Origin: Mesobacillus sp. S13
GTDB lineage: Bacteria > Bacillota > Bacilli > Bacillales > Cytobacillaceae
NCBI RefSeq assembly: GCF_020422885.1
Contig: NZ_CP084622.1
Location: forward strand, 4,669,001-4,733,000
Length of the DNA stretch: 64,000 nucleotides
Direction: 5' to 3'
Part shown: piece after piece, positions 1 to 19,380 of the stretch
How positions within the stretch are numbered: the first letter of the stretch is position 1
How the letters are laid out: each line of letters begins with the position of its first letter
Made by a program: the position numbers and the translations under genes
The notes under the pieces: model-generated
Databases searched by the model: none
What the model was told of the DNA's origin: nothing
What the model saw: only the letters and a program-made list of their open reading frames with translations

Positions 1-654
1 GAAGAGCGCCAGGAGATTATCCAGGAATTCCTTGGACTAGTCGAAAAATGGAATAAAACACAGGCAGAAAAACAGGGAAGCCATGCCCTTTATACAATCG
101 TTGGGCAAAAAGCAGATTTCATGATGATGATTCTGCGCCCTACTATGGAAGAATTGAATGAGATCGAAACAGAATTCAACAAGTCCAGACTTGCTGAATA
201 CACGATTCCTGCTCATTCCTATGTATCCGTTGTCGAGCTGAGCAACTATCTGCCAGCAGGCGAAGATCCATACCAGAACCCGCAAGTCCTTGCACGCCTT
301 TATCCTGAGCTGCCAAAGGCGAAGTATGTTTGCTTCTATCCAATGGACAAGCGCCGCCAGGGCGAAGACAACTGGTACATGCTTCCCATGGAAGACCGCC
401 GCAATATGATGCGCAGCCACGGCATGATCGGCCGCCAGTATGCTGGCAAAGTTAAGCAGATCATCACTGGTTCCGTAGGCTTCGATGATTATGAATGGGG
501 CGTAACATTGTTCGCGGACGATGTCCTTCAATTCAAGAAGCTTGTATACGAAATGCGTTTTGACGAAGTGAGTGCACGCTACGGCGAATTCGGTTCTTTC
601 TTCGTAGGAAACCTGCTTGAAGAAGACAAAGTAGCCACATTCTTGCATGTATAA
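1..654 (+). CDS. hemQ: Coproheme decarboxylase HemQ (5' end missing)
   Basis: HemQ converts coproheme III to protoheme, the last step of the coproporphyrin-dependent heme pathway used by Gram-positive bacteria; it is a cytoplasmic member of the chlorite-dismutase fold family. The frame is open from base 1, so the N-terminal part lies outside the window; 217 residues are visible. The visible part is nearly collinear with what I know of B. subtilis HemQ (YwfI). The catalytic Tyr of the Tyr-Pro-Met-Asp-Lys motif is at bases 337-339 and the proximal heme-ligand His of the Arg-Ser-His-Gly motif is at 418-420. A strong terminator follows. The ATG at 121 is internal and not the true start. Confidence 0.95.
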
Positions 655-7459: not shown

Positions 7460-7921
7460 TATACAGACACTTTCCTCGGGTTCTGCCGCCGTTTTGTCCA
7501 TTAGAGCCCTTCTATCGGACACTTTCTCCGGTTTCTGACTCCTGTTTGTCCATTAGAGCCCCTCTATCGGACACTTTCACCGGTTTCTGACTCCTGTTTG
7601 TCCATTAGAGCCCTTCTATCGGACACTTTCTCCGGTTTCTGACTCCTGTTTGTCCATTAGAGTCCTTCTATCGGACACTTTCACCGGTTTCTGACTCCTG
7701 TTTGTCCATTAGAGCCCTTCTATCGGACACTTTCTCCGATTTCTGCGTCTGTTTTGTCCGTTAGAGCCCTTCTATCGGACACTTTCATCGGTTTCTGACT
7801 CGGTTTTGTCCATTAGAGTCCTTCTATCGGACACTTTCTCCGGTTTCTGACTCCTGTTTGTCCATTAGAGCCCTTCTATCGGACACTTTTCTCGGTTTCC
7901 TCAACCGATTTATCCCTTAGA
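7460..7921. repeat. 52-bp tandem repeat array, family A, array 1
   Basis: About nine imperfect units. The word TATCGG starts at 7513, 7565, 7617, 7669, 7721, 7773, 7825 and 7877: eight occurrences spaced exactly 52 bp. A degenerate unit precedes them at about 7461. Each unit holds TGTCC(A/G)TTAGA and, a few bases on, the inverted partner TCTATCGGACA, giving a potential hairpin per unit. It fills nearly the whole 516-bp gap between moaE and the moeA-fusion gene. No protein-coding signal is convincing. Same family as 19459-19783. Confidence 0.93.
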
Positions 7922-7931
7922 GCACAAATAT

Positions 7932-9851
7932 TTAAAAATAAACTGGCTCTGGATTCTCGACGACTGCGTAGCCGCCAATCTTTGCGACTTCGGCTTTGAA
8001 GGCTTCAGATTGGATCACCGACCTTAACCAGATACCCTTTTCGCTTTCGAAGAATGCTTTTGTCATCAGCAAATCGTAGCTTTCGTCTGCGACCGGGATG
8101 AAGTCGAGACCCATAGCGCGCGATGCCGGGAAGATGCCGAGGCCTGCTGCGTTGTCATTTCCTTTCACTTCAGCGGCGACACTCAGGTGCGAGAACATCT
8201 CGCGGTCATAACCGTTCACTTCGTCTGCTGACAAGCCTGCTTCTTTTAACAATAAATCAAATAATATCCGAGTGCCTGCGCCCTTTTGCCTGTTGGCATA
8301 ATCTATGCCCTTTCCGGCAATGTCACTGACGTTCTCGATACCCAGCGGATTGCCTTTTGGAAGCAGCCAGCCCTGGGTTCTTTTTAAAAATGGATAAAGG
8401 ACTGCGTCTTGCCCGGCAAGGAATTTCCTTACGTAGGTAACATTATATTCCTTTGTTTCCGGGTCTAGCAAATGAATGCCCGCTACATGGGCTTCCCCTT
8501 TTCTGATTGCCATCAAACCGGCCATGCTGCCAACATGGGAAGAAACAATTTTCATGTCGGTACGCTGCTTTTTGAGCTGGGAGGACAGCAGGTCAATCGT
8601 CAGGTCATGACTGCCGCTGAAGACGATCGCGTTCTTGATCTCTTCAACAGATCTGTATAACTCGACCTCGACAATGTCTCCTTGTTCGTATCCTAGCTCC
8701 TCAGGCGGCACGACGAGCAAGCCGTCCGCACGTACTAGCGACATCGTGACGCCCGCTGCGCGTGTCAGCGGATTGGCGACAAATTGTCCATCCACATAGC
8801 CGATATTCATTCGGACAAAGTCCTCCGCCCCCATTGTGGAGACGATCCTGCGGCCAAGCTTTACCTGTAGCTTTGGCCTTTCTGGTTCTGATATCCCTAA
8901 ATATTTGCATACGAGAGGCCTTACAAACCACTCAAGCGCCATGTAGGCAGATACTGGATATCCTGGTACACCAACGACTACCTTATCTTTAATTTTCCCA
9001 AGGATTACTGGCTTACCCGGCCGTGTTGCGACACCATGGGTAAAAACAGTGCCAAGTTCCTCGAGTATATGGACTGTATAATCCTTTGAGCCAGCGGATG
9101 AACCAGCATTGATAACGACGATATCCGACGTCTCCACTGCATTCAGGAGCGCTTCCCTGATTTTTTCCGGCTCATCCTTCACGATTGGATGAAGGTAGGG
9201 ATTGCCTCCCCAATCTTCTACATAATTGCTGAAAACCGTGCCATTGAACTCAATGATCCGGCCTGATGACAGAGATGCGTCTGCGCTGACAAGCTCATTT
9301 CCGGTCGGAATGATGGTTACCAGCGGCTTCTTGACGACGGGTACCTCGGTAACCTGTGCTGCAAGAAGTGCCCCGAGGTCAGCAGGACGCAGTCGATGTC
9401 CCTGGGTGAACAGCATTTCCTCCTGGACGATATCCTCGCCAATCGGGCGGATATGCTGCCATGGTGTGGCAGGCTCGATGATTTCGATCGTCTCATCATC
9501 AATGACCTGGATGTTCTCCACCATGATCACGGCATTATATTGAGGCGGAATCGCGTTCCCAGTATCAACGTAAACGAACTGCTCATCCTTTTTCAAATGA
9601 AGCGGACGCTGTTCATGGGCTTCGTACGTATCTTCAGCATTCACGGCAATGCCGTCCATCGCGGATGCATGGTAAAAAGGCATCGAGACATTGGCGAATA
9701 CAGGGTCTGCAGTAATTCGTCCAAGTGCAGCGGAAGCCGGGATCCATTCTTTTTCTTGAGGCAGGTCGAACGCGTCTAGCACTTCATTCCTCGCTTGTGC
9801 GCGCGGCTTGTCTTCAAGATAAATTTTTCGGTTATAGCGTATTTTATCCAT
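7932..9851 (-). CDS. MoeA fused to a periplasmic-binding-protein-like domain
   Basis: A 639-residue two-domain protein. Residues ~1-400 are a complete MoeA (molybdopterin molybdenumtransferase) with motifs SAMDGIAV, PTGNELV, GSSAGSKDYT and VPGYPVSAYMALEWF. From about residue 410 (VFSGSHDLTIDLL onward) comes a ModA/LysR-type substrate-binding domain with SSHVGSMAGLMAIRKGEAHVAG and NRQKGAGTRILFDLLLKEAG motifs. This fusion is known in databases as a MoeA/PBP-domain protein of unproven role. It may sense or bind molybdate or tungstate while inserting metal, an inference. It sits 13 bp after a stand-alone moeA, so the organism has two MoeA homologues in one operon. GGGGGAG precedes the ATG. Confidence 0.9.
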   Translation of the reverse strand: MDKIRYNRKIYLEDKPRAQARNEVLDAFDLPQEKEWIPASAALGRITADPVFANVSMPFYHASAMDGIAVNAEDTYEAHEQRPLHLKKDEQFVYVDTGNAIPPQYNAVIMVENIQVIDDETIEIIEPATPWQHIRPIGEDIVQEEMLFTQGHRLRPADLGALLAAQVTEVPVVKKPLVTIIPTGNELVSADASLSSGRIIEFNGTVFSNYVEDWGGNPYLHPIVKDEPEKIREALLNAVETSDIVVINAGSSAGSKDYTVHILEELGTVFTHGVATRPGKPVILGKIKDKVVVGVPGYPVSAYMALEWFVRPLVCKYLGISEPERPKLQVKLGRRIVSTMGAEDFVRMNIGYVDGQFVANPLTRAAGVTMSLVRADGLLVVPPEELGYEQGDIVEVELYRSVEEIKNAIVFSGSHDLTIDLLSSQLKKQRTDMKIVSSHVGSMAGLMAIRKGEAHVAGIHLLDPETKEYNVTYVRKFLAGQDAVLYPFLKRTQGWLLPKGNPLGIENVSDIAGKGIDYANRQKGAGTRILFDLLLKEAGLSADEVNGYDREMFSHLSVAAEVKGNDNAAGLGIFPASRAMGLDFIPVADESYDLLMTKAFFESEKGIWLRSVIQSEAFKAEVAKIGGYAVVENPEPVYF

Positions 9852-9864
9852 GATGCGGCTCCCC

Positions 9865-11097
9865 CTATCTCGTCAAAATAACTGGAACGTATTCGCCTTG
9901 AGAAATTCCTTCTTTCCCGGAAACAATCTCGACGATTCCATCGCTTTTTACCAATGTCGTAATCAGGCCCGACTTGCCGATGATCGGCTCGGCCCACCAT
10001 TCGCCATCCTTCTCCTCGAGTCTTACCCTGATGTAATCAGATCTTCCTGGTGAAGAGGCAATATTTTTCACAATCCGTGCAAAAATCCGTTCAGGCTTAT
10101 GCTCGACTTTTTCACCCTTCAGCCTTCTGAAAACCCTTTCGCCAAAAAGCTTAAAAATGATCATCGCGGATGCTGGATGGCCCGGCAGTCCGATGACCGG
10201 CTTTCCGTCAGCGACAGCAAGAATTGTCGGTTTCCCGGGCTTGATGGAAATTCCATGGACAAAGACGCCCGGATCTCCAAGGGACTGGATGACCTCAGTT
10301 GTATAATCCTTTGTTCCAACAGAGCTTCCTCCGGATAAAATCAGGCAATCAGCCTGTTCATACAATTCGCGGGCTTTCTGGGCGAATTCATGATAGTCAT
10401 CGCGTGTAATTCCGCCATATATGAGATCGATATCCCACTCATTGACCAGACCCTTAACGGTCAGGTAATTGATATCGCGGATCTGTCCTGTTTCAAGTGT
10501 TTTTGTTTCAAAAGGAACGATTTCGTCCCCTGAAGAAAGGTACGCAGCCTTCAGCTTTCGGTAGACTTTCACCTCTGAAATACCAAGTGCCGCCAGGGCT
10601 CCAAGCTCCTGCGGCCGCAATCTTGTCCCTTCAGATAAGAGGACTTCGCCTGCCCTGATGTCCTCGCCCTGCCTGATGACATTCTCTCCCGGTGCGATTT
10701 GCTTATACGTATTCAACAGTCCGCCGATTTCCTCGCAGTGCTCGATCATCAGTACGCTGTCACTGCCTGGCGGAAGCATTCCGCCTGTCGGTACGTAGAT
10801 TGCCTCTCCCCTGCCTACCGGCTTTACCGCTTCCTCGCCCATATGGACTTCGCCGGCTACATTCAAGAAGCCTGGCATCGATTCGGATGAACCATATGTG
10901 TCACGGGCGATGACGGCATAGCCATCGACGGTCGAGCGGTCAAAACCAGGTACATTCTCTTCCGCAGTGACATCCTCTGCCAGGATGTAATGAAGCGCCT
11001 CATCAAGCGGACGGGTTTCGGTTTCCGTGATCTTGCCGATCTTCTCCTCAATTAACGCAAAGGTCTCCTCAACACTTTTCACTTTGAAAAATTGCAT
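9865..11097 (-). CDS. moeA: Molybdopterin molybdenumtransferase MoeA
   Basis: Inserts molybdate into adenylylated molybdopterin to make active cofactor. The 410 residues are the normal MoeA length, with FDRSTVDGYAV near residue 55, the MPT-binding YLSSGDEIVPFE region, GGSSVGTKDYT near residue 255 and GLPGHPASAMIIF near 305. It lies between mobA (31 bp upstream) and the MoeA-PBP fusion gene (13 bp downstream) and is surely cotranscribed with them. The ribosome binding site is AAGGGAG. Confidence 0.95.
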   Translation of the reverse strand: MQFFKVKSVEETFALIEEKIGKITETETRPLDEALHYILAEDVTAEENVPGFDRSTVDGYAVIARDTYGSSESMPGFLNVAGEVHMGEEAVKPVGRGEAIYVPTGGMLPPGSDSVLMIEHCEEIGGLLNTYKQIAPGENVIRQGEDIRAGEVLLSEGTRLRPQELGALAALGISEVKVYRKLKAAYLSSGDEIVPFETKTLETGQIRDINYLTVKGLVNEWDIDLIYGGITRDDYHEFAQKARELYEQADCLILSGGSSVGTKDYTTEVIQSLGDPGVFVHGISIKPGKPTILAVADGKPVIGLPGHPASAMIIFKLFGERVFRRLKGEKVEHKPERIFARIVKNIASSPGRSDYIRVRLEEKDGEWWAEPIIGKSGLITTLVKSDGIVEIVSGKEGISQGEYVPVILTR

Positions 11098-11128
11098 GAT
11101 GACTTACTCCCTTTCTAGCACCTGAAAA

Positions 11129-11728
11129 CTATTCTCCGGACTCCGCCCATTTCCTTGCACTTTCATACTCTTCTGGATGATTCATATTGAAAAAGACACG
11201 ATCAAGGCTGCCCTCGAAATAAAGCTGGAGATCTGCTTCATCAAGAAAGCGGACATTGAGATTTTCAAGCATATGCCTGATTCTCAGATTCCCGTCTTCA
11301 ATGCAAGTCTGTGCTTCTCGTGCGACCCGTTTTTGATAGGCTGCAAAAAGCGGATGCTGTCTGCCCTCGCTTACCGGCACGACCGCATCATGGTGTTTAA
11401 GCGCTTTTACCAGGCTTGAGGCAAGCTCAGCCGATACAAATGGCATATCGCAGGCTACAACGAAATTTTCCTCATAATCTGATGCCTCAAGTCCTGCATG
11501 GATTCCCGCAAGCGGCCCGGAACCCGGATATTGGTCTGTAACTGTTTTAATATTTAGAAACTGATAGGTTTCAGGATCATTCGTTACTAGAATTATATCA
11601 TCAAATACGTGCTGTAACTCATCCTTAATTCTTTCAATATTCGTTTTTTCCCGAAATTTCAGGAGAGCTTTGTTACTTCCCATCCTGCTAGATTTGCCGC
11701 CTGATAAAATAATCGCTCCGGCTTTCAT
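11129..11728 (-). CDS. mobA: Molybdenum cofactor guanylyltransferase MobA
   Basis: Transfers GMP to molybdopterin to give the MGD form, which formate dehydrogenases of the DMSO-reductase family require as a bis-MGD. Proper start is the ATG at 11728 (MKAGAIILSGGKSSRMG); the longer frame adds 19 residues overlapping fdhE and has no role. At about 199 residues it matches MobA. The nucleotide-binding motif is LSGGKSSRMGSNKALL at residues 8-23, and GPLAGIHAG and DMPF segments follow. It starts 16 bp after fdhE. Confidence 0.92.
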   Translation of the reverse strand: MKAGAIILSGGKSSRMGSNKALLKFREKTNIERIKDELQHVFDDIILVTNDPETYQFLNIKTVTDQYPGSGPLAGIHAGLEASDYEENFVVACDMPFVSAELASSLVKALKHHDAVVPVSEGRQHPLFAAYQKRVAREAQTCIEDGNLRIRHMLENLNVRFLDEADLQLYFEGSLDRVFFNMNHPEEYESARKWAESGE

Positions 11729-11744
11729 CCCACAGCACCTTCTT

Positions 11745-12554
11745 TTAGTTTGTCTGTTTTGTTTCGCCAGCAGATTTGTACCCATGCTCCTGGGCTACAA
11801 AGTCCAGATGGATGGTGTTCAAGTCGAGCATTGCTGGTGTTGGCTTTACAATATATTGTCTTGTGTCGATTACTTTAGTATATCCTTTGCATTCTTCACA
11901 AATCTGGATCTGTGCGGCTGATTCACCTTCGATTGTCAGGATTTTCACTGTTTCATGATCGTTATTCCCGCAATGTGAACAAGCTACGCGGCGGTCATTC
12001 CAGTGAGCCGAACAACGCGGGCAATGCAGGACCTTCTTTCCTTCGCCTTCAAGCTGTGCGAGGCGGACGGGCTCACCGCACACAGGGCAACCGGCACCGT
12101 GCACACCGTGTTGGATTTCATCCTGGACCTTAGCCGCAGTCAGCTGTAGATACGGACGAAGCACAGTTTCTGCCACAAATTGTGGAATCCAGCCATCCAA
12201 ATTGTTTTCTTCAGCAAAACTAGCAAAGTAAATATAGTTAAAAGCAAATGCTTCATCGATCCATCTTTTAGCTGTCTCTTCATCCAATAGGCTTTTTATA
12301 GATTGCATCGAAGTTTCTATCTCTGGTTGATACTTCGATAAAAGTACTCCTATATCCTCTATCCACTGTAAGAATAGGGAAATATCAAAATCAATAGCCG
12401 CTAATGCAGTGACAGGCACTCCTGCCTCCATTGCTGCTTTATCAAGGTTTGGCCGGACACAGTCAGGATCCAGGGAAGTCTTCCATTGCTCCTGCAATTG
12501 AATGATATCCTTCTGCAATTTCTGGTACTCTTTTGAGACAACGGACTTTTTCAT
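11745..12554 (-). CDS. fdhE: Formate dehydrogenase accessory protein FdhE
   Basis: Cytoplasmic accessory protein needed for assembly or quality control of membrane-bound formate dehydrogenase; family members bind iron through rubredoxin-like cysteines. The 269-residue protein has an all-helical N-terminal half and four CxxC pairs at residues 156/159 (CPVC), 178/181 (CPRC), 192/195 (CSHC) and 219/222 (CEEC), the pattern expected of FdhE. It sits between the FDH gamma gene and mobA. Confidence 0.9.
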   Translation of the reverse strand: MKKSVVSKEYQKLQKDIIQLQEQWKTSLDPDCVRPNLDKAAMEAGVPVTALAAIDFDISLFLQWIEDIGVLLSKYQPEIETSMQSIKSLLDEETAKRWIDEAFAFNYIYFASFAEENNLDGWIPQFVAETVLRPYLQLTAAKVQDEIQHGVHGAGCPVCGEPVRLAQLEGEGKKVLHCPRCSAHWNDRRVACSHCGNNDHETVKILTIEGESAAQIQICEECKGYTKVIDTRQYIVKPTPAMLDLNTIHLDFVAQEHGYKSAGETKQTN

Positions 12555-12594
12555 TGCTGCAGCCCCTCTTTCACTCTATTATTCTAAATTTTGA

Positions 12595-12628
12595 AGGGAA
12601 TGGGCCCCTTTCAGGACAGCCATTCCCT
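12595..12628 (-). terminator. Hairpin between FDH gamma and fdhE
   Basis: AGGGAATGG (12595-12603) pairs with CCATTCCCT (12620-12628). On the minus strand the hairpin is followed by TTCAAAATTTAG, a weak tail, so it may cause only partial termination, lowering fdhE-moeA expression relative to the structural genes. Confidence 0.5.
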
Positions 12629-12639
12629 CTATTAATGTT

Positions 12640-13347
12640 TTACGCGCCTTTTTTCTTGTTCTTGTTTTTATCAAGATCAGGGAAATTCCCCTTCTTGACT
12701 TCTTCTTCATACCATTCTGTATAGTGGTCCTTCGCCCACTCAGCAGGTACCTCACCTGTAATGACGCCAGTGTATCCTGGTCTTGAGTTTTTGTGGATGA
12801 CACTCAGATAGATATGGCCGACTACTACGGCGATTGCCAGACCGAAACCGACGTTATGACCTACATACGCCCATTGGACGACTGCTTTCGGGAAAAGATC
12901 TGGGAACCACATTGGGAAGCCTGAACCGATGATCAGGATCGCTGTCAGGATCTGGATGATTGAATTGATTTTTTCACCAGCGTTAAAGAATGTTTGTTTC
13001 ACATGCTTGAACTTAAAGCCAAATAGCTCTTTGACGAACTCAGTGAAAAACTGCAAATCTCTCTTTTTCCATGTTATGAGCTCTTTTCCCCAGCGAAGGA
13101 ATCCCTTAGGATCCATAATCAGCCAGATGAAAGTAGGCGTGATGAACGCGATCGCGAAAATCCTGTGAAGCAGGCGCGCTCCTTCTGGTCCGCCAAGTAC
13201 TGGATAAAGCCAGTCAAACCACTCTGTATACATTGGCAGGGCCGTGATATAGAGGGCAAAGAATGAAAGTGCATTCACAGCATGTGCGATTACAAAGCCT
13301 TTCGAAAACCGCTTTACCTTAACACCTGAATACTGCGTATTACTCAT
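12640..13347 (-). CDS. Formate dehydrogenase gamma subunit (cytochrome b)
   Basis: Membrane cytochrome b subunit that passes electrons from the beta subunit to quinone. About 235 residues with four predicted membrane helices: FVIAHAVNALSFFALYI, HRIFAIAFITPTFIWLI, INSIIQILTAILIIGSG and VGHNVGFGLAIAVVVGHIYLSVI. Histidines in these helices are candidate heme b ligands, as in FdnI. The chosen start (13347) follows GGAGGTG and overlaps the beta gene by 8 bp; the longer frame begins deep inside the beta gene without a matching site. The tail is lysine-rich and cytoplasmic. Confidence 0.9.
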   Translation of the reverse strand: MSNTQYSGVKVKRFSKGFVIAHAVNALSFFALYITALPMYTEWFDWLYPVLGGPEGARLLHRIFAIAFITPTFIWLIMDPKGFLRWGKELITWKKRDLQFFTEFVKELFGFKFKHVKQTFFNAGEKINSIIQILTAILIIGSGFPMWFPDLFPKAVVQWAYVGHNVGFGLAIAVVVGHIYLSVIHKNSRPGYTGVITGEVPAEWAKDHYTEWYEEEVKKGNFPDLDKNKNKKKGA

Positions 13348-14173
13348 GGCTGCCACCTCCATCTTCTTCATGGCCTTTTCCTTCTTTATTGAATAACTTG
13401 TTGGACACGAACGCACCTACAAGCGCCATGCTTGTCGCTCCAAGCATCATCTTGCCGATTGGCTGTGCATAGTCCTTCCAGACAACAGCTGAAGTTGGAA
13501 CCTTTGGCTTTTCAGGCAGTCCATAGACAGAAGGTTTTTCAGCCAGTACATAAACGGTATGCGTACCGCCGACTCCTTCTGGATTGTAAATCATCGCATT
13601 CGGATACTTATCCTTGATTTCACTCAGACGCTTTTCAGCCTTCTTGAGCATTTCTTCTCTTGTACCGAATTCCATTGCGTCTGTATGGCAGGTAGTGACA
13701 CAAGCTGGCTGCATGCCTTCTTCAAGTCGATCGACGCACATTGTGCATTTCTGTGCCTTCTTGTATTCCTTACCGTTCTTGTCTTTGTAAGTCGCCAGCT
13801 GGACAACATCGAATGGGCAGTTCTGCACGCAGTAGCCGCAGCCGACACATTTATCCGTGTTGACATCCACTGTTCCGAAATCTGTGTAATGCATGGCATC
13901 TTCCGGGCAAACCTTTACGCAAGCTGCTTCTGAGCAGTGGAAACATGAAGAATGGCGGAAAAGATAGTCCAGGTTCCCTTTAGAATCCTCATGCTCGATG
14001 AAGGACAGCACATTCCATGTATTCGCAGTGACATTTGCGTGGGACTGCATACTGCCCAGGAAGTCCTGTGGCTCTGCCGGGAGGTCATTCCAGTTTTTGC
14101 ACGCTACCATACAGGCACGGCAGCCATCACATTTGGTCACATCAACAAATTTCACATATTCCGCCTTCGCCAT
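13340..14173 (-). CDS. Formate dehydrogenase beta subunit (4Fe-4S)
   Basis: Electron-transfer subunit (277 residues) with four ferredoxin-type cysteine clusters: C15/18/21/25 (CDGCRACMVAC), then CFHCSEAACVKVCP, CVGCGYCVQNCP and CTMCVDRLEEGMQPACVTTC. A single hydrophobic helix near residues 240-260 (KMMLGATSMALVGAFVSNKLF) anchors it to the membrane facing outward, as in FdnH. Its ATG overlaps the alpha stop codon by one base (TAATG), so the two are translationally coupled. Confidence 0.95.
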   Translation of the reverse strand: MAKAEYVKFVDVTKCDGCRACMVACKNWNDLPAEPQDFLGSMQSHANVTANTWNVLSFIEHEDSKGNLDYLFRHSSCFHCSEAACVKVCPEDAMHYTDFGTVDVNTDKCVGCGYCVQNCPFDVVQLATYKDKNGKEYKKAQKCTMCVDRLEEGMQPACVTTCHTDAMEFGTREEMLKKAEKRLSEIKDKYPNAMIYNPEGVGGTHTVYVLAEKPSVYGLPEKPKVPTSAVVWKDYAQPIGKMMLGATSMALVGAFVSNKLFNKEGKGHEEDGGGSHE

Positions 14174-17157
14174 TAGTCAGCCCTCCTTATATCACAGAGG
14201 AATGCCTTATATTCAGGAATCGTCGTATTCGCATCCCCGATATGAGGTGTCAAGCGGTTTGCTGTTCCCCCTGTTGCGTATCCTTTGTAGCCAAAGTGCC
14301 AAGGCATGCCGACCTGGTGTACTTTCTTGCCGTCCATCATATGAGGCTTGAAGCGCTTCGTCACCATTGCATATGCCTCAATTTCACCACGAGCGGATGA
14401 AACAATGATCTTATCCTTGTTTTTGATGCCTTTTTCCTTTGCAAGTTCTTCACTCATTTCAACAAACATGTGAGCAACCAGCTCTGACAGCCATTCCTGG
14501 TTCCGAGTCATCGAACCAGATTGCCAGTGTTCAGTCACCCTGTATGTTGTACCGACAATTGGATACTTGTCATTCTTGCCTTTAAGATTGAATTCGCCAT
14601 CGAAAATCGCGATAGCCGGGTTGATTTCACGGCTTGAAAAAGCATTCTTGACTGGGCTTTCAAATGGTTCATAGTGCTCTGGGAATGGACCGTCATTCAA
14701 TGTTGGCGCAAACACTCCTCCTGCACCGCCATTGATCATGATGAACGGACTGGTTCCGCCTGGTTCGGATGGTGACAATACCGGCTTAAAGTCAGGAACG
14801 TCATGGCCGACCCATTTTTTCTGGACTGCATCCCACCAGATCACCGCTTTATCCTTGCTCCATGGCTTTCCGCTTGGGTCAGCAGAAGCACGGTTATACA
14901 GGATACGGCGGTTCGCAGGCCATGCGAATGCCCAGTTCAGGTAATTGCCGCCGCCAGTGTCCTTATTGTCACGGTTCTTGGCACGATTCTTTCCTTCTTC
15001 CGGGTAGAAACCTGAATAAATCCAGTTTCCGCTGCTTGTCGTGCCGTCATCTTTCAGGTCACCGAATGTCTTCAACAGCTGACCAGTTTTAAGATCGTAT
15101 CCGTTGATTTCTTTGCACACTAAGTCGATATCCGGGTGGTGACCGTCACCATAGTTCCAGTCAATGGCATTGATTGTTTTCGCAGCTGGTGAACTTTCAT
15201 TCCTATACATGCCTTTTATTTTCTGCATGAGCACGTGGATGATTTCAAGGTCTGCCACTGACTCGCCTTTTGGATCGATCGCTTTCCAGCGGTACTGCAT
15301 CCAGCGTGATGAGTTGGACACACTTCCTTCTTTTTCGTATGATCCAGCTGCTGGAAGCAGGAATACCTCAGTATTGATCTTCGATGGGTCACTGCCCGCT
15401 TCTTTTTGCCAGAATGCGGATGTTTCTGTTTCCCATAAATCGACTGCAACCATCCATTTTAAGTTTGCAAGAGCTTCCTGTTCCTTGCCTGCGTTCGGCC
15501 CGCCTACCACAGGGTTGGTACCGAATAGGAATGCTCCCTCAAGTTCACCTTTGTACATGGCGTTGAAAAGATTGATATGCGAGTAATTCTTATTTCCTTT
15601 TGGCAGGTACTGATAGCAGAATTCATTTTCCTTCGTCGCGTTCGGACCGTACCATGCCTTTAGCAAGCTTGTAAGAAATTTCGGCTTATTGCTCCAATAG
15701 CCGCCAGACGGTGTTTCTTTTTTGTTGTATCCTTCAAGAGTTGCATGCTCTGGAATTGCTGTCGGAGAACCGATATATCCCGGAAGCAGGTGGTACAATA
15801 GCGCAAAATCCGTTGACCCCTGTACATTGGATTCGCCGCGCATCGCATTGATCCCGCCGCCTGGAAGGCCAATATTTCCTAATAAAAGCTGGATGATACC
15901 GAATGCACGGACGTTTTGTGTTCCAACTGTATGCTGCGTTGTTCCCATCGCGTACATGATGGTTCCAGATTTGCCAGGCTTTCCTGTTGAACAGAACTCT
16001 TTGCATACCATCAGATAATCATCTTTAGGTGTTCCTGTTACTGAAATGACAGTGTCTACATCATAGCGAGAGTAATGTTTTTTCAATAACTGGAATACTG
16101 AACGAGGGTGCTGAAGACTTTTATCCTTGAGTGGATTTCCTTCCTCATCCGTTTCGAATGCCCATTTTGTCTTATCATATTTGCGTGTGGCTTCATCATA
16201 TCCACTGAATAGGCCATCATTAAAATCGAAATCTTCCTTCACGATATAGGAAGCATTTGTATATTCTGCAACATACTCCTTGTGGAATAAATTGTTCTCA
16301 ATCGCATAGTTGATCATTCCGCCCATGAAAGCAATATCCGTTCCTGAACGAAGCGTAGCATAAACGTCAGCCTTTGATGATGTCCTCGTGAAACGAGGGT
16401 CAACAGAGATGATTTTGCCGCCTTTTTCTTTCGCTTTTGTCAACCATCTAAAAGAAATTGGATGATTCTCGGCAGGATTTCCGCCCATGATCAATGCACA
16501 ATCGGTATTTTGCAGATCGCTCCAATGGTTTGTCATTGCTCCACGCCCTACTGTAGGTGCCAGACCGGCAACCGTAGAACTGTGTCATATTCGTGCCTGG
16601 TGTTCGAGATAAACGACGCCAAGCCCTCTCATCATTTTCGCAAGCAGATAGGTCTCTTCATTATCAAGAGCTGCTCCGCCTAAGCTCGCAATGGCTTCGG
16701 TTTTATTGACAAACATGCCTTTTTCTTTTTCAATGAATGTTTTGTCGCGTGTTTCCTTTGTGCGTTTCGCAATTGTGTCATACATCCAGTCCCAGCTTTT
16801 TTCTTCCCATTTGTTGCTGCCAGGAGCACGGTATAGTGGTTTTGTCAATCGTTTTTCAGATGTGTAGACTTGTCTGATCGTCGTACCTTTACTGCAAAGT
16901 GTACCTTCGTTCACTGGGCTATCCGGATCCCCTTCCGTATAAACCACAGTATTGTCCTTTGTGTGTACCAAGATGCCGCATCCTACACCGCAGAATGCAC
17001 AAATGGTTGGTGTTACAGTAGCTTTGGCAATCTTGAATTCTTTTGTTTTAGCGTGGACCTCTTTTTCGTTAAAGCCCAACTCGACAACCGCCAGGGTAGC
17101 CGCAGTGGCTCCTGACAGCTTCAAGAACTGCCGGCGATTCAGGTTGATTTCAACCAT
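14173..17157 (-). CDS. Selenocysteine formate dehydrogenase alpha subunit (UGA at 16585-16587 read as Sec)
   Basis: Catalytic subunit of a Tat-exported, membrane-bound formate dehydrogenase (FdnG type) oxidising formate at a bis-MGD molybdenum centre. An ordinary gene finder splits it in two: an upstream 190-codon piece and a downstream frame, both in the same reading frame and separated by one TGA at codon 191. The context NQARV-U-H of E. coli FdnG aligns with HQARI-TGA-H here, followed by STVAGLAPTVGRGAMTNHW. Read through, it is 994 residues, the family size. Residues 1-35 carry a twin-arginine signal (NRRQFLKLSG); a 4Fe-4S site CAFCGVGCG with a distal GTLCSKG follows. A SECIS hairpin lies just after the UGA. 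The sel genes are not in this window. Confidence 0.95.
16544..16587 (-). promoter_or_regulatory. Bacterial SECIS element and selenocysteine UGA
   Basis: Numbering the RNA from the U of UGA (16587), the upper stem-loop GGUUGCCGGUCUGGCACC spans 15-32 (16573 down to 16556). It has a bulged U at 17-18 and a GGUCU apical loop at 22-26. In the E. coli fdhF SECIS the bulged U17 and loop G23-U24 that contact SelB occupy the same positions, and the stem starts the same 11 bases after UGA. A lower stem CUAC/GUAG is possible. Confidence 0.9.
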
Positions 17158-17212
17158 TTCTCTCTCTCCTTCCCAAAAGTTGCTTAGAACATCCCTAATC
17201 CCACAGGTGTTG

Positions 17213-18007
17213 TCAATTCAGTACTTGCTGGGCTTCCCCCCTTTCAAGTAAATCCTCAGAGGCAGCCGGAGGGTTCAGGTCATCATTGATCCTCTTGGCA
17301 GTTGTATAGACAGTCGCCATTTTCCCCCGCAAGTAGCCCACGACTTCAATATTGAGGAAGCGGGCCAGCTGGATGGCCTGCTTTGTGGCCGCAGTGCGTG
17401 AGCCAATGACGGCAAAACCAAATTTTGCAGCTTTTGAGAGCATCTCATATGAAACCCTTCCGGTCGTCAAAAGGACGAGCCGGTCAGGCTGCAAACGCTT
17501 TCGAATTGCGTGGCCAATAATCTTATCGACGGCATTATGCCTGCCGATATCCTCCCTGACCTCGATGCTTCCATCCTCAAGGATGATACAGGCACCGTGC
17601 ATGCCGCCTGTTTCCAGGTACAGCGGCGAATTTTGCGCGAATTCCGCGCGCTTTTTCAACAAATATGTCAGCGAATAAGTTTCATCGGAATTCACTTTAT
17701 TGAACTTCTTGACATCCGTCATCGAAAAGAAGGTCACTCCCCGGCCGCAGCCTGCAGTATAATGCTTCTTTTTCGAAAACATCTGCTCAGGATCAAAAGA
17801 ATTGCATAATGCTACATCCAATGTGCCGGTCTTTTCATTGAATTGGACGCTGACAACATCCTCTGGCCCATCAATCAAACCTTCTGAAAAAAGGTAGCCA
17901 TATACCCAGTCTTCCAAATCCTGATTTGTCAGCTGGAATACGGCAATTTCATATCCATTCAGCTTCAGGCTGATCGGATATTCTTCAGGACAGCCTTTCT
18001 TGATCAT
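17213..18007 (-). CDS. fdhD: Formate dehydrogenase sulfurtransferase FdhD
   Basis: FdhD passes sulfur from the cysteine desulfurase to the bis-MGD cofactor of formate dehydrogenase, which is required for activity. The product is about 264 residues. It shows the conserved AGCGRGVTFF motif near residue 90, where E. coli FdhD has a CGVCG pair; only one cysteine is present here. Further family motifs are GGMHGACI, REDIGRHNAVDKIIG and TTGRVSYEMLSKAAKFG. The ATG at 18007 follows AGGGGTG; an upstream in-frame GTG lies within that site. It is the first gene of the minus-strand FDH block, 55 bp before the alpha gene. Confidence 0.93.
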   Translation of the reverse strand: MIKKGCPEEYPISLKLNGYEIAVFQLTNQDLEDWVYGYLFSEGLIDGPEDVVSVQFNEKTGTLDVALCNSFDPEQMFSKKKHYTAGCGRGVTFFSMTDVKKFNKVNSDETYSLTYLLKKRAEFAQNSPLYLETGGMHGACIILEDGSIEVREDIGRHNAVDKIIGHAIRKRLQPDRLVLLTTGRVSYEMLSKAAKFGFAVIGSRTAATKQAIQLARFLNIEVVGYLRGKMATVYTTAKRINDDLNPPAASEDLLERGEAQQVLN

Positions 18008-18455
18008 GTTCTTCACCCCTTATCTGGTACTTCATCTGCGGGCTCCACTGCGATTAACGACTTCTTCCCCCACCATTTGTGCGATGGAATGAAAGACTGT
18101 TATGAATCTTGCAAACTGCTATTCGGCTCTCTTGTGAAACTAAGAACCTTATATAAAAAACATTCCACTATGCAAAAAGTAATAATACCCCTATGCCTTT
18201 AATGTACTGGAAATCTGCTGGTTGTAACCGTTTCAATTGTTACAAAAATATAGATGAAAATTGTCTATTTTTTAAACAAACTCTTAATTTGAGATTTTTT
18301 ATTTACGAAAAATGTTTAGTGGGTCAATTTTCACACAGTCAACTGTAAATCAATTTATTTTTTCCCTCAGTAACTTTCATCACGTCAAAGCCCTAATGCC
18401 ACAAAATCGTCAAAAGTTAATTTTAACCATATAATCAGCTTTCAAAATCAATTCT
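18008..18455. other. Divergent intergenic region between fdhD and pdxK
   Basis: About 550 bp lies between the start codons of fdhD (minus) and pdxK (plus), with no plausible gene. Bases about 18150-18470 are very AT-rich, as expected for promoter and upstream activating sequence. I looked for a TGTGA-N6-TCACA Fnr site like that of the nos operon and did not find one. Oxygen or formate control of the FDH block is therefore not shown by sequence. Confidence 0.5.
18148..18175 (-). promoter_or_regulatory. Possible promoter of the FDH block
   Basis: On the minus strand TTGCAT (18175-18170) and TATAAG (18153-18148) are spaced 16 bp, a modest SigA match about 140 bp upstream of fdhD. Other AT-rich hexamers nearby could serve as well. 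Confidence 0.35.
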
Positions 18456-18483
18456 TTGTCTAAATCTACAGAATTGGTATAAT
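18456..18483 (+). promoter_or_regulatory. SigA promoter of pdxK
   Basis: TTGTCT at 18456-18461 and a perfect TATAAT at 18478-18483, with a 16-bp spacer. Transcription would begin near 18490, giving a leader of about 65 bases that contains a short TTGTC/GACAA hairpin around 18511-18523. Confidence 0.7.
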
Positions 18484-18555
18484 CATAAGAAAGTGATGAA
18501 GGTGAAGGCTTGTCCTGACAAGGCATTCGCCATTCTTAAAATGGAGGTAGTTTTG

Positions 18556-19380
18556 ATGAGTTTGAAAAAGGTGTTAACAATCGCAGGTTCCGATACAAGC
18601 GGCGGCGCTGGCATCCAGGCTGACCTTAAGACCTTTCAGGAACTGGGCGTTTATGGAATGACTGCTCTTACAACGGTTGTGACTATGGACCCTAAAAATC
18701 ACTGGCATCATGAAGTTTTCCCACAGCCAGTTGAGCTTGTAGAAAAGCAGCTTGAAACGATCCTTTCCGTTGGAATAGATGCAATGAAGACAGGGATGCT
18801 CGGAACGGTTGAAATCATTGAGCTGGCTGCACGCAAAATCGATGAACATAAGTTGGACAGGGTGGTTATCGATCCTGTTATGGTATGTAAAGGAGAAGAC
18901 GAAGTGCTCATGCCTGAAAACACAGATGCCATGAGAGAATTGCTGCTTCCAAGAGCAACAGTTGTCACTCCGAACCTATTCGAAGCATGGCAGCTGGCAC
19001 AAACTGGGCCAATCCGTACAATCGATGACATGAAGGAAGCTGCAGTGAAGATCCATGATCTAGGCGCGAAGAACGTTATGATCAAAGGCGGAAACAAGCT
19101 GAACCATGAAAAAGCTGTAGACCTGCTTTACGATGGAAAAGACTTCACCCTGTTTGAATCTGAAAAAGTTGAAACAAGCTTCACACATGGCGCAGGCTGC
19201 ACATTCGCCTCTGCCATCACTGCACAGCTGGCAAAAGGCAAAACAGTACCTGAAGCATTGGAAGTCGCGAAAGGATTCATCACTGAAGCAATCAAGCACG
19301 GCTTCAGATTGAATGAATACGTAGGACCAACCGCACACCTCGCTTACAACAAGTACGCAGGCGGCAACCGCGGGGAATAA
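18556..19380 (+). CDS. pdxK: Pyridoxine/pyridoxal/pyridoxamine kinase
   Basis: Phosphorylates B6 vitamers in the salvage of pyridoxal phosphate; the Bacillus enzyme is a ThiD-like ribokinase-family member that can also accept HMP. The product is 274 residues, starting MSLKKVLTIAGSDTSGGAGIQADLKTF, nearly the same as B. subtilis PdxK (formerly ThiD2). The anion-hole/catalytic motif HGAGCTFASAITAQLA is near residue 210. The ATG at 18556 has GGAGGT at 18543-18548; the longer frame starts at the transcription start and is unlikely. Single-gene unit with its own promoter and terminator. Confidence 0.92.
   Translation: MSLKKVLTIAGSDTSGGAGIQADLKTFQELGVYGMTALTTVVTMDPKNHWHHEVFPQPVELVEKQLETILSVGIDAMKTGMLGTVEIIELAARKIDEHKLDRVVIDPVMVCKGEDEVLMPENTDAMRELLLPRATVVTPNLFEAWQLAQTGPIRTIDDMKEAAVKIHDLGAKNVMIKGGNKLNHEKAVDLLYDGKDFTLFESEKVETSFTHGAGCTFASAITAQLAKGKTVPEALEVAKGFITEAIKHGFRLNEYVGPTAHLAYNKYAGGNRGE

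What the first reader, a model, noticed from the sequence alone, without database searches (positions are those of the whole stretch)
14173..17157. Formate dehydrogenase alpha with an in-frame UGA selenocysteine
The alpha gene is broken only by one TGA exactly where E. coli FdnG and FdhF carry Sec (HQARI-TGA-H versus NQARV-U-H). Both sides are in the same frame and together give the full 994 residues. A frameshift or decayed gene would not place a stop just there. Selenoproteins are uncommon in Bacillaceae, so this implies SelA, SelB, SelD and tRNA-Sec elsewhere in this genome.
Basis: partly seen in the sequence, partly recalled or inferred. Interest (0 to 1): 0.8.

Follow-up and report, generated by a model that had tools for sequence, protein, structure and literature searches.

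The report
Selenocysteine formate dehydrogenase in a Bacillus-like bacterium
The gene for the main subunit of a formate-burning enzyme has a stop codon in the middle that this bacterium most likely reads as the rare amino acid selenocysteine; this is a well-known arrangement, and relatives of this bacterium share it.

Summary
On the minus strand, 17157-14173 is one 994-residue frame broken only by TGA at 16585-16587 (codon 191). The product is a formate dehydrogenase-N alpha subunit (1311 bits, cut-off 814). A hairpin like the bacterial selenocysteine signal begins right after the UGA. It covers the most codon-conserved six-codon window of the gene in 55 coding sequences.

What fails is "uncommon in Bacillaceae". 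SelA is over its cut-off in 172 of 193 genomes of this family and 181 of 397 of the order. All 121 family genomes that match this enzyme have a matching piece with an in-frame TGA. The genome also holds a second UGA formate dehydrogenase and a UGA selD.

Verdict: a real but ordinary selenoprotein, a new member of a known kind. One lead: 35 relatives keep selA although no FDH homologue listed for them has a TGA.

The parts
14173..17157 (-). fdnG-type formate dehydrogenase alpha subunit, 994 aa with Sec at residue 191; stop TAA at 14173-14175, overlapping the next ATG by one base
   Evidence: Translation with TGA=U; TIGR01553 1311 bits over cut-off 814; Molybdop_Fe4S4, Molybdopterin and Molydop_binding domains over cut-off
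16585..16587 (-). in-frame TGA, read as the selenocysteine codon (residue 191)
   Evidence: aligned with the non-standard residue of PDB 1h0h; TGA in 76 of 78 readable named loci, of 80
16542..16584 (-). putative bacterial SECIS hairpin directly after the UGA; upper stem-loop at 16556-16573 with loop GGUCU
   Evidence: MFE fold (the energy alone is not unusual, z -0.87); codons 195-200 are the most codon-conserved six-codon window of the gene in 55 coding sequences; covarying upper stem
17086..17145 (-). twin-arginine export signal of FdnG (residues 5-24)
   Evidence: PF10518 25.8 bits, cut-off 22.7
17213..18016 (-). fdhD, accessory sulfurtransferase, directly upstream
   Evidence: TIGR00129 166 bits, cut-off 140.9; NF001943 177 bits, below its cut-off of 269; PF02634
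13340..14173 (-). fdnH-like iron-sulfur beta subunit
   Evidence: TIGR01582 236 bits, below its equivalog cut-off of 334.7; Fer4 domains over cut-off
12640..13416 (-). fdnI-like cytochrome b gamma subunit
   Evidence: TIGR01583 89 bits, below its cut-off of 115.85; PF01292 62.5 bits, cut-off 30.1
11745..12554 (-). fdhE-like accessory protein
   Evidence: TIGR01562 50 bits, below its cut-off of 187.65; PF24860 32.1 bits, cut-off 27
11129..11785 (-). mobA-like molybdenum cofactor nucleotidyltransferase
   Evidence: PF12804 145 bits
9865..11097 (-). moeA-like molybdenum insertion protein
   Evidence: PF03453, PF00994, PF03454 over cut-offs
7932..9851 (-). second moeA-like protein fused to a PBP-like domain
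   Evidence: PF03453, PF00994, PF03454 and PF12727 over cut-offs

Best explanation
This is the alpha subunit gene of a respiratory formate dehydrogenase. UGA codon 191 is decoded as selenocysteine, the molybdenum ligand. Shown by sequence: one frame on both sides of the UGA, a Sec-type active-site context, a conserved and covarying hairpin directly after the UGA, and the four components of the Sec machinery in the same genome. Inferred from what is established in E. coli (recalled, and described in a background passage of PMC1794560): SelA converts seryl-tRNA-Sec with selenophosphate from SelD; SelB binds the hairpin and delivers Sec-tRNA to the UGA. Also inferred: the enzyme is exported by the Tat system, docks on the membrane through the iron-sulfur and cytochrome b subunits encoded just downstream, and passes electrons from formate to the quinone pool; FdhD and FdhE help mature it, and the adjacent mobA and moeA genes supply molybdenum cofactor.
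For: Frame and codon. Family: TIGR01553 1311 bits over 814; alignment with 1h0h. Machinery: selB, tRNA-Sec, selA, selD. Conservation in 55 coding sequences (54 relatives and this gene): of 163 amino-acid-invariant columns with 4- or 6-fold codon choice, 6 keep one codon in all rows; 4 of these are codons 195, 197, 198 and 199 in the hairpin, and the other 2 (991-992) are the AGGAGG before fdnH. Window 195-200 ranks first in the gene by mean frequency of the commonest codon (0.99; mean over 276 amino-acid-invariant degenerate columns 0.63); the next window that does not overlap it is 186-191, which ends on the TGA. Pairing: on 36 distinct sequences four apical pairs are kept in 36, 34, 36 and 34 rows, and columns 15-27 change on both sides in 19 rows (rows are related, so these are not 19 events). 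Loss: three distinct Cys copies (L064, L065 = L139, L160) keep the protein motif but lack the GCC-GGTCT-GGC letters. Co-occurrence in 193 genomes: this FDH with selA over cut-off 119, FDH without 2 (assemblies 81% and 80% complete), selA without this FDH 53, neither 19 (tables counted by eye).
Against: No protein, selenium or expression data are at hand. The folding energy of the 61-nt stretch is ordinary (z -0.87; 33 of 200 shuffles fold at least as well). In several orthologues the lower stem is not in the predicted minimum. Several Sec copies have other tip letters, among them E. coli fdnG, L069-L071 and L167-L169, and two of 36 rows break an apical pair at columns 16-26 and two at 18-24. 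The beta, gamma and FdhE proteins score below their NCBIfam cut-offs.
Confidence: 0.97

Rival explanations
1. Pseudogene or sequencing error: the TGA is a nonsense mutation or a base error for a Cys codon.
For: A single base would do it, and Cys versions of this enzyme exist (L064, L065, L139, L160).
Against: TGA stands at the same codon in 76 of 78 readable named loci, and each of the 121 family genomes with a match has at least one matching piece with an in-frame TGA (counted by eye; codon place checked in 35 loci). Synonymous codons after the TGA are nearly frozen. The sel genes are present.
Confidence: 0.01
2. Split gene: translation stops at the UGA and restarts at the internal ATG (16536), giving two polypeptides.
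For: The downstream ORF opens with ATG 17 codons after the UGA.
Against: The break lies on the active-site residue inside the catalytic domain. Codons between TGA and ATG are conserved as protein except three columns, and 195-200 also as DNA.
Confidence: 0.01
3. UGA is read through by another route, for example as Trp or Cys by near-cognate tRNA, without SelB.
For: Some basal readthrough of UGA occurs in Bacilli in general (recalled, no call).
Against: The genome has its own tRNA-Sec (UCA), SelA, SelB and SelD. SelD has TGA at its catalytic position in 6 of 6 checked genomes with SelA and Cys in 7 of 7 checked without SelA over the cut-off (genomes picked from the stops listed, so not a blind sample).
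Confidence: 0.01

Closest known systems
Formate dehydrogenase-N alpha subunit (FdnG, TIGR01553; E. coli, PDB 1kqf)
   Same: Whole-length match, TGA at the same active-site motif as E. coli fdnG (QARV-TGA-H), Tat signal, Fe4S4 and molybdopterin domains, followed by beta and gamma subunit genes as in E. coli.
   Different: Bacillus-like host; beta and gamma proteins below their equivalog cut-offs; mobA, moeA and fdhD/fdhE-like genes around it. The best sequence match in the PDB is 1h0h (1062 bits; a Desulfovibrio enzyme, recalled), ahead of 1kqf (969 bits).
Bacterial SECIS element of E. coli fdhF
   Same: Hairpin directly after the UGA with GGTCT at the tip: E. coli fdhF GGTTGCAGGTCTGCACC, this gene GGTTGCCGGTCTGGCACC.
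   Different: By my reading the stem below the loop is one pair longer here; E. coli fdnG has different tip letters; the lower stem varies among relatives. SelB binding untested.
Selenoproteins of Bacillales as surveyed in 2006 (PMC1794560, table 2, seen as a passage: 3 families, 3 selenoproteins)
   Same: Same order; formate dehydrogenase alpha and SelD were named the most widespread bacterial selenoproteins (PMC5029168, passage).
   Different: In this family selA is over its cut-off in 172 of 193 genomes, so the trait is common here; the 2006 set held few such genomes (inference).

Membership tests
Formate dehydrogenase-N alpha (FdnG) | Full-length match over the curated equivalog cut-off | tested here: met
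   TIGR01553 1311.4 bits against 814.2, profile 2-1008 of 1009
Formate dehydrogenase-N alpha (FdnG) | Sec or Cys as the Mo ligand followed by His | tested here: met
   TGA-His; aligned on the non-standard residue of 1h0h
Formate dehydrogenase-N alpha (FdnG) | Iron-sulfur beta and cytochrome b gamma subunits encoded beside it | tested here: met
   Fer4 protein 13340-14173 and PF01292 protein 12640-13416 over Pfam cut-offs; TIGR01582 and TIGR01583 are the best NCBIfam models but below cut-off
Formate dehydrogenase-N alpha (FdnG) | Formate-dependent reduction of quinone | not testable with these tools
   needs protein
Sec-decoding trait | selA, selB, selC and selD in one genome | tested here: met
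Bacterial SECIS element | Hairpin directly downstream of the UGA with G in the apical loop | tested here: met
Bacterial SECIS element | Conservation beyond the protein sequence and compensatory pairs | tested here: met
   codon conservation; double changes in 19 rows at columns 15-27, 2 each at 17-25 and 18-24; 0 of 500 shuffles reach the covariation score, with the tool's warning that relatedness inflates this
Bacterial SECIS element | Unusually stable fold | tested here: not met
   z -0.87, 33 of 200 shuffles at least as stable; I do not count stability as part of the definition, so membership is not excluded
Bacterial SECIS element | Binds SelB and directs Sec insertion | not testable with these tools
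   needs experiment

The most novel reading that the evidence does not exclude
In this family the Sec machinery is not tied to formate dehydrogenase. 35 of the 172 selA-bearing genomes have neither close Sec FDH at the thresholds used, and no FDH homologue listed for them has an in-frame TGA (the list is cut). Yet selD has an in-frame TGA in 33 of the 35; the rows of the other 2 were not listed, and the codon place was read in 4 of the 33. Either SelD, which makes the selenium donor, is almost the only selenoprotein keeping the trait alive there, or these Bacillaceae hold a selenoprotein that has not been catalogued. Other known selenoprotein families (HesB-like, peroxiredoxin, GrdA and so on) were not searched, so a known family could fill the gap.
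Probability: 0.15. Interest if true: 0.5.

Novelty: new member of a known kind. Interest (0 to 1): 0.2.

Why it matters
Annotation that treats TGA only as a stop would split this gene in two, as the ORF list does; how public records annotate it was not checked. The wider result is that the selA gene is common in this family (172 of 193), so formate respiration there probably depends on selenium supply (inference). The Cys duplicates of the enzyme in two genomes that also hold the Sec copy (L064, L065) form one clade nested among Sec copies, a natural Sec-to-Cys comparison.

Tried and rejected
Fold energy as evidence for the hairpin: not significant, so I used codon conservation and pair changes instead. 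Two stem registers were counted, the second chosen after looking at the alignment: with a bulged U (83.3% of cells paired) and without (87.0%). The apical four pairs fit the unbulged register best; below them the register seems to differ between lineages and I do not claim one. E. coli fdhF was left out of the pair count because its stem is one base shorter: 36 of 37 distinct sequences used, the 37 coming from 83 sites.

Rows dropped: for I named 55 of the 80 named loci, by my own choice the closer Sec copies (mostly Bacillaceae, but L151 is Carboxydocella); L147 fell out because its match range had 27 stops, leaving 54 plus the window gene. L146 was not named because its match length is no multiple of three. 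For the tree, 85 of 88 candidate proteins passed; 3 were too short or had no open frame. In one search, 2 of 15 motif rows were in other frames than selD and were dropped.

Rfam at gathering thresholds gave no match in the window; I recall no Rfam family for bacterial SECIS. The promoter and terminator scan of 7500-19000 found no more than shuffles would give (18 against a mean of 14.9, sd 3.6; 11 against 11.7, sd 4.0). A pattern made from the two hairpins of this genome found just these two places in it, with none in the reversed control; selD has other letters after its TGA.

Papers: PMC1794560, PMC5029168, PMC9312934, PMC5322559, PMC7331816 and PMC8659212 were seen as passages found by terms; no paper was read whole. 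'Mesobacillus' with 'selenocysteine' returned 0 papers; 'selenocysteine', 'Bacillaceae' and 'formate dehydrogenase' together returned 1, on Moorella (listing only). 'selenatarsenatis' with 'formate dehydrogenase' returned 3, of which 2 were looked into. Of the listings I opened only the papers named above.

Full report
Observation. The minus strand from 17157 to 14173 is one frame with a single TGA at 16585-16587. By table 11 it breaks into ORFs of 190 and 787 residues; with TGA as Sec it gives 994. The context is EHQARI-U-HSSTVAGL. The product matches formate dehydrogenase-N alpha over its full length (TIGR01553, 1311 bits, cut-off 814), with a Tat signal, a Fe4S4 domain and both molybdopterin domains over their cut-offs. 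In the best PDB match, 1h0h, residue 191 lies on a non-standard residue (Sec by recall).

Surroundings. The gene sits in a compact minus-strand group: fdhD, fdnG, fdnH, fdnI, fdhE, mobA, moeA, and a moeA fused to a PBP-like domain. The fdnG stop overlaps the fdnH start by one base. The beta, gamma and FdhE proteins score under their NCBIfam cut-offs but over Pfam cut-offs.

Machinery. The window lies in a 4.806 Mb single-contig genome. It has selB (364 bits, cut-off 242), selA (562 bits, cut-off 268), selD (395 bits, cut-off 125) and a tRNA-Sec (67 bits, gathering score 47; anticodon TCA). The selA and selD matches lie about 0.5 kb apart on opposite strands; selB and the tRNA gene are elsewhere. 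SelD has TGA at its catalytic position, KAG-TGA-GCK. A second formate dehydrogenase of the FdhF type, 701 residues, has TGA in GCNRT-TGA-H (TIGR01591 788 bits, cut-off 666).

Recoding signal. Directly after the UGA the RNA can form a hairpin whose tip reads GCC-GGUCU-GGC; E. coli fdhF has GCA-GGUCU-GC, while E. coli fdnG differs at the tip. Its energy is ordinary (z -0.87). The case is comparative. In 55 coding sequences (54 relatives and this gene, 62-91% identical to the window protein), codons 195-200 form the most codon-conserved window of the gene. Of 163 amino-acid-invariant columns with four or six synonymous codons, 6 never change codon; 4 are in this stretch and 2 are the AGGAGG before fdnH. 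On 36 distinct sequences four apical pairs hold in 36, 34, 36 and 34 rows, with double changes at three of the four; the rows are related, so rows are not events. The second FDH of this genome differs in the letters below the tip yet keeps pairing. A pattern made from the two hairpins hits just these two genes in the genome, and nothing when reversed.

Cys copies as a natural control. Genomes G184 and G006 hold an extra copy with TGT or TGC in place of TGA. These keep HQARI-C-HSST but have lost the hairpin letters, as has the Cys copy of Syntrophomonas, L160. On a FastTree tree of 85 proteins (81 Sec, 4 Cys) the Bacillaceae Cys copies, L064 and the identical pair L065 and L139, form one clade among Sec copies; the fewest changes between Sec and Cys on the tree are 2. 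Sec-to-Cys change in FDH is known (PMC1794560, passages).

Distribution. Of 193 genomes of the family, 121 match this FDH at E 1e-100 or better, and each shows at least one matching piece with an in-frame TGA (counted by eye; codon place checked in 35 loci including the window's own). One of them, G089, also has a frame break. SelA is over its cut-off in 172 of 193. The two FDH-bearing genomes without it, G179 and G183, are 81% and 80% complete. The FdhF-type FDH is found in 130 of 193 at E 1e-150, with at least one TGA in every listed row, some rows also with TAG or TAA (codon place not checked in the relatives). At order level selA is found in 181 of 397 genomes drawn evenly from a larger group. 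The named loci place the genome in or near Mesobacillus: M. subterraneus DSM 13966 and M. selenatarsenatis SF-1 are 90% identical in this protein. The genus is inference from these loci.

SelD control. All 7 listed selD rows without a TGA (the list is cut) are in genomes without SelA over the cut-off. Of 13 selD genes read, TGA stands at the catalytic codon in 6 of 6 genomes with SelA, this one included, and Cys in 7 of 7 without. UGA goes with the machinery.

Known or new. Formate dehydrogenase alpha is the most numerous family in the table of bacterial selenoproteins of PMC5029168 (822 organisms, passage), and Bacillales selenoproteins were counted in 2006 (PMC1794560, table 2, passage). This is a new member of a known kind.

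Lead. 53 family genomes have selA over the cut-off without this FDH; 35 of them also lack the FdhF type at E 1e-150. In those 35, no listed FDH homologue has a TGA (the listing is cut), while selD has a TGA in 33 (the rows of G050 and G124 are not listed). What keeps Sec there is open; other selenoprotein families were not searched.

Noticed in passing
L066:3726-5831 (minus), genome place G000:C1:2836728-2838827: Second UGA formate dehydrogenase of the FdhF type, next to a gene that looks like a PAS-domain histidine kinase (by eye, no domain search), with its own hairpin directly after the TGA.
   Followed up: yes
L023, selD (downstream ORF 9951-10925, plus strand), genome place G000:C1:2577893-2578819: selD is itself a UGA gene at its catalytic position and lies divergent to selA. 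In relatives TGA in selD goes with the presence of selA (13 of 13 checked, this genome included).
   Followed up: yes
35 family genomes (e.g. G001, G035, G188): They keep selA, and 33 of them a selD with an in-frame TGA, but no FDH homologue with TGA was listed. Their other selenoproteins, if any, were not searched.
   Followed up: partly
L064 (G184) and L065 (G006, same contig as L139): Cys duplicates of the Sec enzyme in genomes that also hold the Sec copy; the hairpin letters are gone.
   Followed up: partly
L180: A contig labelled Chryseobacterium sp. ISL-80 carries an FDH nearly identical to that of Cytobacillus oceanisediminis (L110) on the tree; probably a mislabelled or mixed assembly.
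   Followed up: no
G089:C1:4542231-4545213 (L072): The FDH of this single-contig genome of the same genus is in two frames with overlapping matched residues; error or decay not decided.
   Followed up: no
window 7932-9851, minus strand: MoeA-like protein fused to a PBP-like domain beside a plain MoeA gene.
   Followed up: no
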